From contig NZ_FZOW01000008.1 in NCBI RefSeq assembly GCF_900188125.1, positions 62,001 to 126,000 of the forward strand: a stretch of 64,000 bases of DNA. Direction: 5' to 3'. Positions 49,287 through 56,533 of this stretch are shown piece after piece. The notes under the pieces are model-generated. The model ran no database searches. It saw nothing but the letters and a program-made list of their open reading frames with translations, and had not been told where the DNA came from. Made by a program: the position numbers and the translations under genes. The stretch comes from Rhodococcoides kyotonense. Its GTDB lineage: Bacteria > Actinomycetota > Actinomycetes > Mycobacteriales > Mycobacteriaceae. How positions within the stretch are numbered: the first letter of the stretch is position 1; each line of letters opens with the position of its first letter.

Positions 49287-49910
49287 ATGGACGCCGCAGA
49301 CTGGGACCGAAAGTATTCGAGCCGGGACCTGATCTACGGCGCGCCGCCGAACCAGACGCTCGTCGAGGTCGCGACGTCGCTCCCCAGGGGCCGCGCGCTC
49401 GACCTCGCGTCGGGCGAGGGGCGGAATGCACTGTGGCTCGCGACTCGCGGCTGGGAGGTCAGCGCCGTCGATTTCTCGGCCGTCGGGCTGCAGAAGGGCC
49501 ACGCGATCGCGTCGCGGTCCCCGAAATCGGTCCGGGAGCGCCTCACGTGGGTTCATGCCGATGTGACGACCATCGCAGCGGAACCGACATATGACTTGGT
49601 TCTCATGCTCTATTTACACCTGCCCCACGAGCAACGTGCGAAAGCAATACGCAACGCTCTCGACGCCCTGAAACCTGACGGAATCCTCATGATTCTGGGG
49701 CATCATTCCGACAACATCTCACACGGGGTGGGCGGACCCCAGAATCCCGAACTACTCTATACAGCAGAGGAATTGGCGTTCGATGTCGGGGATCGAGCCG
49801 CCGTTCACCTCTGCGAGAAGAGGCTCCGAACAACAGACAGTGGTACCGCCATCGATGCTTTGCTACTCGCCGGTAAGTCCGGTCTTGGCAGCGGGAATGA
49901 ACGGGGGTAA
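49287..49910 (+). CDS. Class I SAM-dependent methyltransferase
   Basis: The 207-residue protein has ALDLASGEGRNALWLATRGW (SAM loop), SAVDFSAVGL (acidic loop), and YDLVLMLYLHLPHEQR. It resembles the TehB/Methyltransf-25 group. The substrate is unknown. The context (DUF4185 before, FadE5 after) does not suggest one. No SD is striking; the ATG at 49287 is the only sensible start. Confidence 0.8.
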   Translation: MDAADWDRKYSSRDLIYGAPPNQTLVEVATSLPRGRALDLASGEGRNALWLATRGWEVSAVDFSAVGLQKGHAIASRSPKSVRERLTWVHADVTTIAAEPTYDLVLMLYLHLPHEQRAKAIRNALDALKPDGILMILGHHSDNISHGVGGPQNPELLYTAEELAFDVGDRAAVHLCEKRLRTTDSGTAIDALLLAGKSGLGSGNERG

Positions 49911-49921
49911 TATGCCGTTAT

Positions 49922-49937
49922 GTTACCGACGAGTAGC
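49922..49937. promoter_or_regulatory. Candidate TetR-type operator upstream of fadE5
   Basis: TTACCGACGAGTAGC at 49923-49937 matches 12 of the 15 positions of TTACTGACGAGTAAG at 61304-61318, which is a perfect palindrome. It lies about 50 bases before the fadE5 start, so repression by the same regulator is likely. Confidence 0.5.
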
Positions 49938-49987
49938 TAACTTGGGCGGTACTCACGAGACCGCACCACCGACTGGAGAGCGACGCA

Positions 49988-51823
49988 ATGGGCCATTACA
50001 AGAGCAACCTTCGGGATCTCGAGTTCAACCTCTTCGAGCTGTTCGGGCTCGACGAGTCCCTCTCGGGTGACAAGTTCGGCGACCTCGACGGCGAGGCAGC
50101 CCGCGACATGCTTCGCGAGGTAGTACGCCTGTCCGAGGGCCCCCTGGCCGAGTCGTTCGCCGAAGCGGACCGCAACCCGCCCGTTTTCGACCCCGAAACC
50201 CACACCCTGAAGCTGCCCGACTCCTTCAAGAAGTCGTTCAAGGCGCTCTACGACGGTGAATGGTGGCGCGTCGGCCTCGACGAGGAAATCGGCGGCATCG
50301 CTGCACCTCGCAACCTCGGCTGGGCCATCAACGAGATGCTCCTCGGCTCCCAGCCTGCAGCCTTCATGTACTCCGCCGGACCCTCCTTCGCCAACGTCCT
50401 GTTCCACAACGGAACCGACGAGCAGAAGGAATGGGCAAAGGTCATCGCAGAGCGCCAGTGGGGCGCCACGATGGTGCTCACCGAGCCCGACGCCGGATCC
50501 GACGTCGGCGCAGGTCGCACCAAGGCCATCAAGCAGGAAGACGGCTCCTGGCACATCGAGGGAGTCAAGCGCTTCATCACCTCGGCAGTGTCCGACGACC
50601 TGTTCGAGAACATCTTCCACCTCGTACTCGCTCGTCCCGAAGGTGCAGGACCCGGCACCAAGGGCCTGAGCCTCTTCTTCGTTCCCAACACCCACTTCGA
50701 CTTCGAGAAGGGGGAAATGGGCGAGCGCAACGGCGTCTTCGTCACCGGCGTCGAGCACAAGATGGGCCTCAAGGCGTCGGCCACCTGTGAACTCACGTTC
50801 GGCGGACACGGCATTCCCGCGCAGGGATGGCTCGTCGGCGAGGTACACAAGGGCATCGCGCAGATGTTCGACGTCATCGAGCACGCTCGAATGATGGTCG
50901 GCACCAAGGCAATTGCGACGCTGTCCACCGGCTACCTCAACGCGCTCGGCTACGCCAAGGAGCGTGTCCAGGGCGCCGATCTGACGCAGATGACGGACAA
51001 GGCCGCGCCGCGTGTCACCATCACGCACCACCCGGACGTGCGTCGCAGCCTCATCACCCAGAAGGCGTACGCCGAAGGCCTGCGCGCGGTGTACCTCTAC
51101 ACGGCAGCTCACCAGCACCCGATCACCGCCAAGCAGGTGTCCGACGCCGACGAGGACCTCGCCTTCCGCGTCAACGATCTGTTGCTCCCGATCGTCAAGG
51201 GTGTCGGTTCGGAAATCGCATACAGTCAGCTCGCCGAATCCCTGCAAACTCTCGGTGGGTCCGGCTTCCTGCAGGACTACCCCATCGAGCAGTACATCCG
51301 CGACTCCAAGATCGACTCGCTGTACGAGGGCACCACAGCCATCCAGGCGCAGGACTTCTTCTTCCGCAAGATCGCCCGTGACCGTGGCGTCGCGCTCGCT
51401 CACGTTGCAGGACAGATCAAGTCGTTCATCGACAGCGAGGCAGGCAACGGTCGTCTGAAGGCAGAGCGCGCACTGCTCAGCACCGCCCTCGAGGACGTGC
51501 AGGCCATCGTCACGTCGATGACCCAGCAGCTCATGGGCGCTCAGGAACAGCCGACCGAGCTGTACAAGGTCGGACTCGCATCCGTTCGCTTCCTGATGGC
51601 GTTCGGTGACCTGCTCATCGGATGGCTCCTGCTGCGCCAGTCCGAGATCGCCATCAAGGCGCTCGACGCCGGCGCCGAGGGTGCGGACAAGTCGTTCTAC
51701 GAAGGCAAGGTCGGCGTCGCGTCGTTCTTCGCCAAGAACGTGCTCCCGAACCTCACGGCCACCCGCAACATCCTCACCAACCTCGACCTCGACGTCATGG
51801 AGCTCGACGAAGCAGCGTTCTGA
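49988..51823 (+). CDS. fadE5: Acyl-CoA dehydrogenase, FadE5 type
   Basis: The 611-residue protein has the length of the large FadE5 type (Rv0244c, 611 residues). It catalyses the first step of fatty-acid beta-oxidation, the dehydrogenation of acyl-CoA. Visible: [20 protein letters not shown] (FAD binding), [17 protein letters not shown], and the catalytic Glu region [19 protein letters not shown]. The N-terminal [17 protein letters not shown] is characteristic. In mycobacteria it neighbours fadA2, fabG4 and htdX; here these lie 8 kb downstream. A candidate operator is upstream. Confidence 0.92.
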
Positions 51824-51839
51824 TCTTCTCGCTCGTCAG

Positions 51840-51866
51840 CGGCCGCACCCTTCCTGGGTGCGGCCG
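51840..51866 (+). terminator. Terminator hairpin after fadE5
   Basis: A perfect 11-bp stem: CGGCCGCACCC (51840-51850), loop TTCCT, GGGTGCGGCCG (51856-51866), followed by TTGGTGTT. It starts 17 bases after the stop. Confidence 0.7.
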
Positions 51867-51884
51867 TTGGTGTTCGAGGGGTTG

Positions 51885-51968
51885 CTCAGCTCAGGTGCTC
51901 ACCATTTCGTCAGGCGCACGCCGATTCGCTAGCCAACAGACGTGCACCTGACTACATGGTGAGCATCT
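51885..51968. repeat. 84-bp hairpin repeat, copy 1 (left flank of DUF559 unit)
   Basis: This sequence is repeated at 53033-53116 with only three mismatches (81 of 84 identical), as a direct repeat with a spacing of 1148 bp. Each copy is itself a long imperfect inverted repeat: TGCTCACCAT near the left end pairs with ATGGTGAGCA near the right, and the middle parts (CGCACG...CGTGCACCTGAC) pair partly. Its last base is part of the stop codon of the DUF559 gene. Confidence 0.85.
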
Positions 51969-52923
51969 ATAGCCGTCGTGCAGGCCGAATGATCGCCGTG
52001 GGCTTCGGAGATCGCTCTGCTCTCGTCATTGCTCGGCGGAGACGGTCGACCACGACCTCGAACCGGAAGATCTCGTCCCACGTCCAACTGACGAACTGCA
52101 GCCCGGTGTCTCGGATCCAATCCTCGCGCCGTTTCTCCTTGAACGCGACGTCACCGGGTTCCTCGCCAGGCCGAAGGTACTTCACGTATTTGGCTTTGCC
52201 GTCGCATTCGCCCACCACCTCGGGTGTTACACCGAAATCGCCTCGGCCGAGGAACTTTCCCTTCGAATCACGAATCTCGACCTGTAACTCCACGTCGCCG
52301 AAACCGTGTCGATGCAGCCGAATTCGGCTCAGCGACTCAGCGACGCTCTCGCTGCGCGCATCCAGGAAGTCGGCGATCCGCCGAGCAGCTGCGATCCCCC
52401 GCCATCGACGTGCGCGCTCGAGTTCCTCAGCGACTTCGAGACTCGACGCCCCCTGCCTCAGTGCAACGTCACCGAGCACCACCGCCGTATCCAGCGTCGT
52501 GGTCCGGGCGATGTCGACGAGTGTGCGTGCAAGCGTCGTGACTTTGACACCGTCGACCACGACGAAGTCGTCGAGAGCAGAACAGTGCGTCACCACGCCC
52601 GCAGTGGTACGACCCCCACCGCGCCGATTGCGGGTCACGTGCACCTTCGACAATTCGACTTCGTACAGCGGCAATCCATGAAGCACCGCAGCCGACTCGT
52701 GGCTCACGACTGCACTGTCCGACAGCGTGGGCACCACAGCATCGATGAGGAGCCGGTGCCTGGACGTGTCGTCGAGCGAGTCCGCATAGCTCGAACCGAT
52801 GAAGCTGCCATTGTGCACGGACATCCAGCCGCCACTCGTGTGCAGCGCTCGAATCTCGTGGTCGGCCATACCCATCGCCAACGCATCACGACGACGAAGG
52901 ATTCGGGTCGGGTCCAGTTCCAT
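51967..52923 (-). CDS. AbiEi-antitoxin-like N-domain plus DUF559 (Vsr-like) C-domain protein
   Basis: The ~318-residue protein has an N-terminal ~80-residue region resembling the AbiEi-type winged-helix domain (RRRDALAMGMADHEIRALHT) and a C-terminal DUF559 domain. The latter has a PD-(D/E)XK-like pattern: LGRGDFGVTPEVVGECDGKAKY with Asp, Glu and Lys in the expected order. DUF559 is related to the Vsr mismatch endonuclease fold. Many actinobacteria carry several such genes with unknown function. The start is ATG 52923 (GTG 52938 is alternative). The gene stands between two 84-bp hairpin repeats, unlike all its neighbours. Confidence 0.75.
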   Translation of the reverse strand: MELDPTRILRRRDALAMGMADHEIRALHTSGGWMSVHNGSFIGSSYADSLDDTSRHRLLIDAVVPTLSDSAVVSHESAAVLHGLPLYEVELSKVHVTRNRRGGGRTTAGVVTHCSALDDFVVVDGVKVTTLARTLVDIARTTTLDTAVVLGDVALRQGASSLEVAEELERARRWRGIAAARRIADFLDARSESVAESLSRIRLHRHGFGDVELQVEIRDSKGKFLGRGDFGVTPEVVGECDGKAKYVKYLRPGEEPGDVAFKEKRREDWIRDTGLQFVSWTWDEIFRFEVVVDRLRRAMTRAERSPKPTAIIRPARRL

Positions 52924-52974
52924 GGTCCGAGACTGCACTATCGGTCAGGCCGACTCGGCCTCTCGGGAGCCAAT

Positions 52975-53007
52975 TGTGGATAACTCTGCGCCTGTGGACG
53001 AATAGTG
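52975..53007. promoter_or_regulatory. DnaA-box-like motifs upstream of the DUF559 gene
   Basis: TGTGGATAA (52975-52983) is a perfect reverse-complement DnaA box (TTATCCACA). A second, TGTGGACGA, follows 10 bases later at 52994. They lie upstream of the minus-strand gene. A real DnaA function is not established. Confidence 0.35.
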
Positions 53008-53032
53008 GCACGGGCGTGCAGTTCCGGGGCTA

Positions 53033-53116
53033 CTCAGCTCAGGTGCTCACCATTTCGCCAGTCGCACGCCGATTCGCTAGCCAACTGACGTGCACCTGAC
53101 TACATGGTGAGCATCT
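53033..53116. repeat. 84-bp hairpin repeat, copy 2 (right flank of DUF559 unit)
   Basis: Second copy of the repeat at 51885, in the same orientation, 81 of 84 bases identical. It ends 9 bases before the stop codon of ribBA. The two copies and the intervening DUF559 gene form a discrete 1.2-kb unit. Confidence 0.85.
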
Positions 53117-53125
53117 GCCACCGGT

Positions 53126-54346
53126 CTACACGCTCCGCTCGAGCTGACCGGGGAGGAGGTGCCCCATCCGGTCACGCTTGGTCTCCAGATAGCGGACGTT
53201 CGCGGGCGCGGCTCCGACGATCAGGGGCACCCGAGCGGTGACCCCGATTCCGTTGTCGCGCAAACCCTGCACCTTGTCTGGGTTGTTGGTGAGCAGGCGG
53301 ACCGTCGTCACGCCGAGATCTTCGAGTATCGCTGCAGCACCGCCGTATTCGCGGCCGTCGGCGGGCTCGTCGAGTTCGAGGTTCGCCTGCATCGTGTCGA
53401 AACCCTGGTCCTGCAACCGGTATGCGGCGAGCTTCTTGAGCAGCCCGATGCCACGACCCTCGTGTCCGCGCAGGTAGACGACGACTCCACCTTCGCGTGC
53501 GACACGTGCGAGCGCTGAATCCAATTGCGGACCGCACTCGCACCGTTCCGACGAGAACGATTCCCCGGTAAGGCATTCGGAGTGCACCCGTACGATCGGA
53601 GCGCCGGCGAGGTCGCCCTTCACCAGAGCGATGTGTTCCGCTCCGGTTTCTCGATCCGCGTATCCGTAGGCGCGAAACTCACCGTGCGACGTCGTCAGTA
53701 CCGTTTCGGCAACTCGATCGACTCTGGACACCGGCGGAACAGTCGATATTCCCTGCGCCAAGCGGTAATTCGCGAGCTGCTCGATGGTGAGAACCGGAAG
53801 CTGCATCCGTCGACCCAGCGATTCGATATCAGGGAACGTCATCATGGATCCGTCGTCGGCGACGAGTTCTGCTATGACTCCGACCGCGGGAACACCCGCA
53901 AGACTGCACAAGTCGACGGCTGCCTCGGTGTGACCGGCACGCTCCAGCACCCCGCCTGGTCGAGCACGCAACGGGATGACGTGCCCCGGACGGATCAAAT
54001 CCGCTGCGACAGAACCCGGATCGGCCAGGACTCGCAAGGTACGAGCACGATCGGCGGCACTGATTCCCGTCGTCACTCCGACCGCTGCGTCGACCGTCAC
54101 GGTGTACGCGGTCTTCTTCGGATCCTGATTGTCGGCGACCATCGGCGGCAGATCCAACGCGTCCGCACGCGCTGCGGTCATCGGCGCGCACAGCAGACCC
54201 GAGGTGTTGCGGATGGTCCACGCGGTCCATTCCGGCGTCACTCGATCCGCCGCGAGAACGACGTCACCCTCGTTCTCGCGTCGTGCATCGTCGGTGACCA
54301 GGACCGGCTTGCCCTGTCGCAACGCGTCGAACGCGGCTTCCATCAT
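53126..54346 (-). CDS. ribBA: Bifunctional DHBP synthase / GTP cyclohydrolase II
   Basis: The 406-residue protein makes both precursors of riboflavin. The N-terminal RibB domain (1-200) has DDARRENEGDVVLAADR and SICRLRPGHVIPLRARPGG-like RPGHVIPLRA, GHTEAAVDLCSLAG. The C-terminal RibA domain (~205-400) has the zinc cysteines SERCECG, LRGHEGRGIGLLKKL, and GFDTMQANLELDEPADGREY. No FMN riboswitch was seen upstream. The flavin reductases directly upstream (adjacent stop/start) suggest a coordinated flavin unit. Confidence 0.93.
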   Translation of the reverse strand: MMEAAFDALRQGKPVLVTDDARRENEGDVVLAADRVTPEWTAWTIRNTSGLLCAPMTAARADALDLPPMVADNQDPKKTAYTVTVDAAVGVTTGISAADRARTLRVLADPGSVAADLIRPGHVIPLRARPGGVLERAGHTEAAVDLCSLAGVPAVGVIAELVADDGSMMTFPDIESLGRRMQLPVLTIEQLANYRLAQGISTVPPVSRVDRVAETVLTTSHGEFRAYGYADRETGAEHIALVKGDLAGAPIVRVHSECLTGESFSSERCECGPQLDSALARVAREGGVVVYLRGHEGRGIGLLKKLAAYRLQDQGFDTMQANLELDEPADGREYGGAAAILEDLGVTTVRLLTNNPDKVQGLRDNGIGVTARVPLIVGAAPANVRYLETKRDRMGHLLPGQLERSV

Positions 54347-55350
<1,004 letters not shown>

Positions 55351-55532
55351 TTCGGGCCTCCAGCCACGTCGTAGTGCCGTGACTGTTACTCAACACCGCA
55401 TCCATGTCGGACATGCAACCCGAATGTGGCGGGAGTATTGCGCCGCGAGTTCGTGCATCGACACGCACAAGAGCAGCGGCGACGCACGCAAAGCACTTCT
55501 GAACGCCGCTCACATTTGCGTGGGAGCGGGGG

Positions 55533-56533
<1,001 letters not shown>

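What the first reader, a model, noticed from the sequence alone, without database searches (positions are those of the whole stretch)
51885..53116. DUF559/AbiEi-type gene bracketed by two 84-bp hairpin repeats: a possible mobile unit
Two direct repeats, 81 of 84 bases identical and each able to fold into a long hairpin, flank a single gene for a Vsr-like (PD-(D/E)XK) protein with an AbiEi-type N-domain. The unit is exactly bounded, sits between fadE5 and ribBA, and the left repeat overlaps the gene's stop codon. The layout (nuclease-like gene plus flanking palindromes) recalls REP-associated transposases or homing endonuclease units, but the protein family is different. Members of this family are common and multi-copy in actinobacteria and have no known function.
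Basis: partly seen in the sequence, partly recalled or inferred. Interest (0 to 1): 0.75.

Follow-up and report, generated by a model that had tools for sequence, protein, structure and literature searches.

The report
Nuclease-like gene with cognate dispersed palindromes
A DNA-cutting-type gene in a soil actinobacterium sits between two copies of its own private DNA palindrome, more copies lie scattered over the genome, and the same gene-plus-palindrome pairing recurs with different palindromes in many actinobacteria, resembling the REP/RAYT repeat systems of other bacteria but built on an unrelated protein.

Summary
Observation confirmed. Two 91-bp direct repeats (95%), each a ~76-bp palindrome, flank a 323-aa gene between fadE5 and ribBA. 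By predicted fold the protein is an AbiEi-antitoxin domain joined to an I-Bth0305I/Vsr-like nuclease domain.

The pairing is family-wide: left and right flanks share a repeat (>=32 bits) in 57 of 80 named loci, against 0 of 152 control ORFs and 3 of 200 mismatched pairs. Palindromes differ between paralogs and species. Solo copies lie elsewhere: 3, 5 and 3 for three paralogs of this genome. The gene beside fadE5 is resident (20 of 37 species) and diverges faster than its neighbours. With this protein as query, phages gave 0 of 50,697 records and plasmids 1 of 72,556. In one species the gene is missing and one palindrome bridges fadE5 and ribBA.

Best reading: a REP/RAYT-like system in which a PD-(D/E)XK-type protein replaces the HUH transposase. 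Binding, cutting and mobility are inferred, not shown; compensatory-change tests were negative. A DnaA-box-like pair precedes many of these genes.

The parts
51878..51968 (.). left (downstream) repeat; palindrome 51893-51968; overlaps the gene's stop codon
53026..53116 (.). right (upstream) repeat; palindrome 53040-53117; 9 nt from the ribBA stop codon
51967..52938 (-). gene for AbiEi-fold (about residues 3-193) plus Vsr/I-Bth0305I-like (198-309) protein; likely start ATG at 52923
52975..52983 (-). DnaA-box-like 9-mer TTATCCACA between the upstream palindrome and the gene
   Evidence: family counts
52993..53001 (-). second DnaA-box-like 9-mer TCGTCCACA, 18 nt away
49988..51823 (+). left neighbour, fadE5-type acyl-CoA dehydrogenase (name recalled from homology); marks the conserved locus
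51828..51878 (.). separate stem-loop just after fadE5, terminator-like by eye; not part of the repeat
   Evidence: I4; similar stem-loops after fadE5 in relatives
53126..54346 (-). right neighbour, ribBA-type gene (name recalled from homology)

Best explanation
It is a resident 'REPtron-like' pair: a chromosomal nuclease-type gene together with its own family of palindromes. Two copies bracket the gene, and further copies lie as solo units or small arrays, mostly between genes. Shown by sequence: the bracket across the family, different palindromes for different paralogs, dispersed copies, conservation of catalytic-type residues, a species that lacks the gene and keeps one palindrome at the site, and a DnaA-box-like pair before many of the genes. 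Shown by prediction: the AbiEi-plus-Vsr-like fold. Inferred: the AbiEi-type winged-helix part recognises the cognate palindrome, and the nuclease-type domain nicks or cuts at its edge, or on the extruded hairpin, during replication. Repair and replication restart then copy the palindrome to nearby or distant sites and homogenise the copies. Recombination between the two flanking copies deletes the gene and leaves one palindrome. The DnaA boxes may tie expression to replication initiation.
For: Flank repeats: 57 of 80 loci vs 0 of 152 ORF controls and 3 of 200 mismatched pairs; 42 of 70 genus loci vs 5 of 150 mismatched; 17 of 29 in a phylum-wide set, without its own control. In 131 non-identical loci of the first two sets, 87 have the repeat; the downstream copy begins a median 3 nt after the stop and the upstream copy ends a median 102 nt before the start. 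Specificity: within-genome paralog pairs examined share palindromes in 1 of 44. Non-syntenic pairs share them in 7 of 13 at 65-75% protein identity, 17 of 65 at 55-65%, 7 of 593 at 48-55%. Dispersal; 10 of 11 solo copies outside clear coding frames. Arrays: 3 units in G014 versus 2 in G013 at each of two homologous loci. One-palindrome site. G015 and G033 keep 8 and 4 exact cores without the fadE5-side gene. Fold. E201, D234, E244, D246 invariant, K250 nearly so.
Against: No transposition, binding or cleavage is shown. Of four dispersed sites of G013/G014 tested, three appear, by the gap between their flank matches, to hold a unit in relatives too, so recent movement looks rare. Copy numbers are low against classical REPs (1-17 exact cores per genome). 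In 35 aligned units of the CAAACG type there is no compensatory change beyond shuffles; all 500 shuffles did as well or better. The 9-copy set of the window's type is also unremarkable against shuffles. 44 of 131 loci show no clear repeat. The DnaA-box-like 9-mer is found in only 4 of 29 phylum-wide loci. Some related proteins (60-66% identity, Geodermatophilaceae) share no palindrome.
Confidence: 0.62

Rival explanations
1. Operator/insulator reading: the palindromes are binding sites through which the AbiEi-type protein represses its own gene and marks other sites; nothing moves, and solo copies are old duplications used as regulatory or chromosome-structuring sites.
For: AbiEi of Streptococcus agalactiae binds two 23-bp inverted repeats in its promoter and autoregulates (PMC3985639, passages seen). 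One copy lies upstream of the gene in the 87 bracketed loci. Cores are conserved in sequence rather than by compensation, as expected for sequence-specific binding.
Against: A second copy sits right at the stop codon (median 3 nt), where an operator is not expected. Three of eleven solo copies lie within 1 nt of a stop codon. The nuclease-type residues are conserved. Array number varies between species.
Confidence: 0.2
2. IS-like reading: palindrome-gene-palindrome transposes as a whole, and single-palindrome sites are targets or excision scars.
For: Compact, exactly bounded unit; one-palindrome site in G004 whose left and right flanks match the two outer flanks of G025; several paralogs per genome, many with their own bracket.
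Against: Gene beside fadE5 in 20 of 37 species, with protein identity 44-75% to the window gene in the 18 measured. Phages 0 of 50,697 and plasmids 1 of 72,556 records with this query. Among the 131 loci compared, all 143 pairs of >=75% protein identity were syntenic.
Confidence: 0.1
3. The palindromes are only transcription terminators or RNA hairpins that accumulate downstream of genes, and the association with the gene is incidental.
For: Strong hairpins next to stop codons.
Against: No T-tract terminator found in 51700-53300 (a weak test, since it also passes over the stem-loop after fadE5). Likeness between upstream and downstream flanks is absent from control ORFs (0 of 152). fadE5 already has its own stem-loop.
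Confidence: 0.05

Closest known systems
REP/REPIN-RAYT (TnpA-REP) systems, 'REPtrons'
   Same: Gene bracketed by two palindromes, in many cases close to or right after the stop codon; palindromes dispersed; gene and palindrome co-diverge; gene evolves faster than neighbours (PMC2817692: abstract, passages and section 3 part 3 seen). REPIN doublets show a spacing peak at 71 bp (PMC3116915, passages); most units here have cores 70/71 nt apart.
   Different: Protein is AbiEi fold plus Vsr-like domain, not an HUH Y1 transposase. Brackets are more often direct (60) than inverted (27 of 87), whereas RAYT brackets are inverted. Palindromes are longer and fewer; found here in Actinomycetota.
AbiEi antitoxin of type IV AbiE toxin-antitoxin systems (6y8q)
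   Different: No AbiEii toxin gene beside it in the window; single gene; extra C-terminal nuclease-type domain.
Vsr-like homing endonuclease I-Bth0305I (3r3p) and Vsr (1cw0)
   Different: Free-standing gene bracketed by palindromes; no homing shown.

Membership tests
REP-RAYT (REPtron) | gene flanked by two copies of its cognate palindrome | tested here: met
   57 of 80 loci; 87 of 131 non-identical loci
REP-RAYT (REPtron) | cognate palindromes dispersed outside genes | tested here: met
   low copy number
REP-RAYT (REPtron) | protein is an HUH Y1 (IS200/IS605-type) transposase | tested here: not met
   positive assignment of residues 3-193 to the AbiEi fold and 198-309 to the Vsr-like fold leaves no room for another domain; Pfam lists no Y1 transposase hit
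REP-RAYT (REPtron) | protein cleaves its palindrome | not testable with these tools
   needs biochemistry
AbiE type IV toxin-antitoxin | antitoxin followed by AbiEii nucleotidyltransferase gene | tested here: not met
   neighbours in the window are fadE5 and ribBA
Vsr-like homing endonuclease | Vsr/I-Bth0305I-type catalytic fold | tested here: met
   (predicted model)
Vsr-like homing endonuclease | resides in an intron or intein | tested here: not met
   free-standing intergenic gene
Insertion sequence | near-identical copies at different sites | tested here: not met
   143 of 143 pairs of >=75% identity syntenic among the 131 loci compared

The most novel reading that the evidence does not exclude
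A second, independently evolved class of gene-driven genomic palindromes: an AbiEi-fold protein joined to a Vsr-like nuclease domain spreads and maintains its own palindromes through replication-coupled nicking, switched on by DnaA in part of the family, in Actinomycetota.
Probability: 0.45. Interest if true: 0.93.

Novelty: new variant of a known kind. Interest (0 to 1): 0.85.

Why it matters
REP-like palindromes with a driver gene have, in the papers seen here, been tied to one enzyme class, the HUH transposases. A multi-copy actinobacterial protein family without a known role is here linked to private palindromes. That gives it a testable substrate and makes 'what spreads palindromes' a question with possibly two independent answers. 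It also offers a natural set of matched protein-DNA pairs for studying specificity.

Tried and rejected
Rfam over 49500-55500: one sub-threshold, unrelated match. NCBIfam: 0 families for 21 members. PHROGs: none. Solved-structure sequence search with A3: nothing relevant. Plasmids by DNA: one 21-bp match. I had first expected the repeats to be an independent dispersed element next to a resident gene; one search overturned this.

Compensatory-change tests gave no support within a type. Exact insertion boundaries and target duplications could not be read, because intergenic DNA diverges too much between species. A suspected empty site in G033 turned out to be a decayed unit with a remnant core. 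Dispersed sites tested in close relatives mostly seem filled there too (judged by gap lengths).

Papers: searches found 0 papers; others gave listings with no title or abstract start describing palindromes around such genes. PMC3733652 (REP survey) was searched for six terms, among them Rhodococcus and Actinobacteria, with 0 occurrences; of PMC8266576 I saw abstract and outline. Searches timed out, and subscription papers are not held, so the absence is weak.

Full report
What is there. The window carries two 91-bp direct repeats, 51878-51968 and 53026-53116, 95% identical, each largely palindromic. Both strands of the left copy and the minus strand of the right copy fold better than all 200 shuffles; the plus strand of the right copy is matched by 2 of 200. 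Between the repeats lies one gene, 51967-52938 on the minus strand. Its stop codon overlaps the left repeat by two bases; the right repeat ends 9 nt from the stop codon of the ribBA-type gene. fadE5 ends at 51823 and has its own stem-loop before the left repeat.

A family-wide bracket. Relatives occur in 37 of 37 genus genomes, usually several per genome. A covariance model built from nine copies of this genome and of G006 found hairpins on both sides (E <= 0.01) of 16 of 19 genes next to fadE5 (L023-L041); two of the 16, L023 and L024, gave copies to the model. Of the other three, L027 and L041 show a strong left-right repeat (58 and 98 bits) and L035 only a weak inverted one (36 bits). A twentieth gene, a partial match in G012 (L269), has hairpins on both sides. 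By eye the palindromes differ between species groups and agree within a species. A comparison without any model, left 350 bp against right 350 bp, gave 42 of 70 genus loci at >=32 bits against 5 of 150 mismatched pairs. For 80 named loci, among them Rhodococcus, Nocardia, Prescottella, Antrihabitans, Geodermatophilus, Pseudonocardia, Blastococcus and Nakamurella, it gave 57 of 80, against 0 of 152 control ORFs in the same loci and 3 of 200 mismatched pairs (Fisher p 7e-36 against the ORFs, relatedness not corrected). The 80 are the best of a capped list. Control ORFs often have coding flanks, so the mismatched pairs are the fairer control. Across the phylum the protein family occurs in 57 of 296 sampled genomes, this one included. 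Of the 29 loci given from other genomes, 17 have the bracket (one of them a locus already seen, no separate control). Over 131 non-identical loci, 87 have it: downstream copy a median 3 nt after the stop codon, upstream copy ending a median 102 nt before the start, 60 direct and 27 inverted. Hairpins of -50 kcal/mol or better lie downstream in 31 of 64 and upstream in 29 of 64 loci, against 4 of 46 and 4 of 46 controls.

Private palindromes, dispersed copies. In this genome the window's type has two flanking and three solo copies. A second paralog (C9) has two flanking and five solo copies, and a third (C41) two flanking and three solo, the last of them weak. Ten of eleven solo copies lie outside clear coding frames and three lie within 1 nt of a stop codon (simple ORF and GC3 criteria). 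Within-genome paralog pairs examined share a palindrome in 1 of 44. Non-syntenic pairs share one in 7 of 13 at 65-75% protein identity, 17 of 65 at 55-65%, 7 of 593 at 48-55% and 33 of 7,025 below 48%. In the Geodermatophilaceae several pairs at 60-66% identity share none, so palindromes can change fast. In another clade the 18-nt core CAAACGCGCGCGCGTTTG occurs exactly 1-17 times in 15 of 37 genomes, and 0 times read backwards. There most units are two such cores 70/71 nt apart (a shorter form about 60), in single copies and small arrays; homologous loci hold 3 units in G014 and 2 in G013 at two places. All 12 genomes whose fadE5-side gene has this palindrome type carry the exact core, against 3 of 25 others (p 2e-7; relatedness not corrected). 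Two of these three, G015 and G033, lie inside the same clade on the fadE5 tree, lack the fadE5-side gene though they have other paralogs, and keep 8 and 4 cores.

Resident, fast-diverging, sometimes absent. The gene sits next to fadE5 in 20 of 37 species. Protein identity to the window gene is 44-75% where fadE5 keeps 85-96%, and ribBA 88-93% in the three other loci where it is linked. The tree needs about 8 gains or losses (quick method). In G004 the gene is absent and one palindrome lies between fadE5 and ribBA. Its left flank matches the outer left flank of the sister species G025 and its right flank the outer right flank, with a few mismatches and a 19-nt partial extra end in G025. G027 and, by eye only, G017 also keep palindrome sequence beside fadE5 without the gene. 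This is what recombination between two direct repeats would leave; insertion into a palindrome is not excluded. With this protein as query the gene is absent from 50,697 phage records and found once, at 32% identity, in 72,556 plasmid records.

DnaA-box-like pair. Between the upstream palindrome and the gene, 113 of 131 loci have at least one TCCACA on the coding strand within 140 nt of the start, 52 of them two or more, spaced mostly 18, 19 or 15 nt; in matched downstream and distant stretches it is 1 and 4 of 131. With the full 9-mer [TC][TC][AG]TCCACA it is 108 of 131. The commonest forms are TTATCCACA (62), TCATCCACA (29) and TTGTCCACA (21) of 166. The dnaA region of this genome holds five such 9-mers in 5.5 kb, while the whole 64-kb window holds three, two of them before this gene; the background in other loci was 32 in 200 kb. 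That actinobacterial DnaA boxes look like this is recalled. In the phylum-wide set only 4 of 29 have one, so it belongs to part of the family.

What speaks against. Movement is not shown. One solo copy of this genome has no counterpart, by eye, at the homologous site in eleven other species, but the intergenic DNA there is too diverged to read boundaries. In the other clade tested copies mostly seem shared by relatives, and one apparent empty site is a decayed unit. Within a type, pairing is kept by invariance, not by compensation, which favours sequence recognition over pure structure.

Comparison and verdict. The layout, the position at the stop codon, co-divergence, fast divergence and the link between gene and copy number match what is described for RAYTs (PMC2817692; abstract, passages and section 3 part 3 seen), and the 71-bp REPIN spacing is a curious likeness (PMC3116915 passages). 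The defining enzyme is different, so this is not a RAYT. I judge the association as close to certain, and the mechanism (palindrome recognition by the AbiEi-type part, nicking by the nuclease part, copying during repair) as more likely than not.

Noticed in passing
52970-53005 and upstream of 113 of 131 relatives: DnaA-box-like 9-mers, often two 18-19 nt apart, precede these genes; the same forms occur at this genome's dnaA region. It may link the gene to replication initiation.
   Followed up: partly
L025 (G009), between the fadE5-side palindrome and the gene: A transposase-like insertion of about 1 kb with inverted ends (seen by eye) sits at the edge of the palindrome, as some insertion sequences do at REPs.
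   Followed up: no
L026 (G025), left and right repeats: The likeness of the two flanking copies runs about 12 nt past the palindrome into the last codons of the gene and of ribBA, which suggests gene conversion between the two ends.
   Followed up: no
54347-56533: Two tandem copies of a two-gene cassette (flavin-reductase-like plus FMN-reductase-like ORFs, names recalled) follow ribBA in the ORF list.
   Followed up: no
G000:C25:173481-175158: Solo palindromes of two different paralog types lie only about 1.5 kb apart.
   Followed up: no
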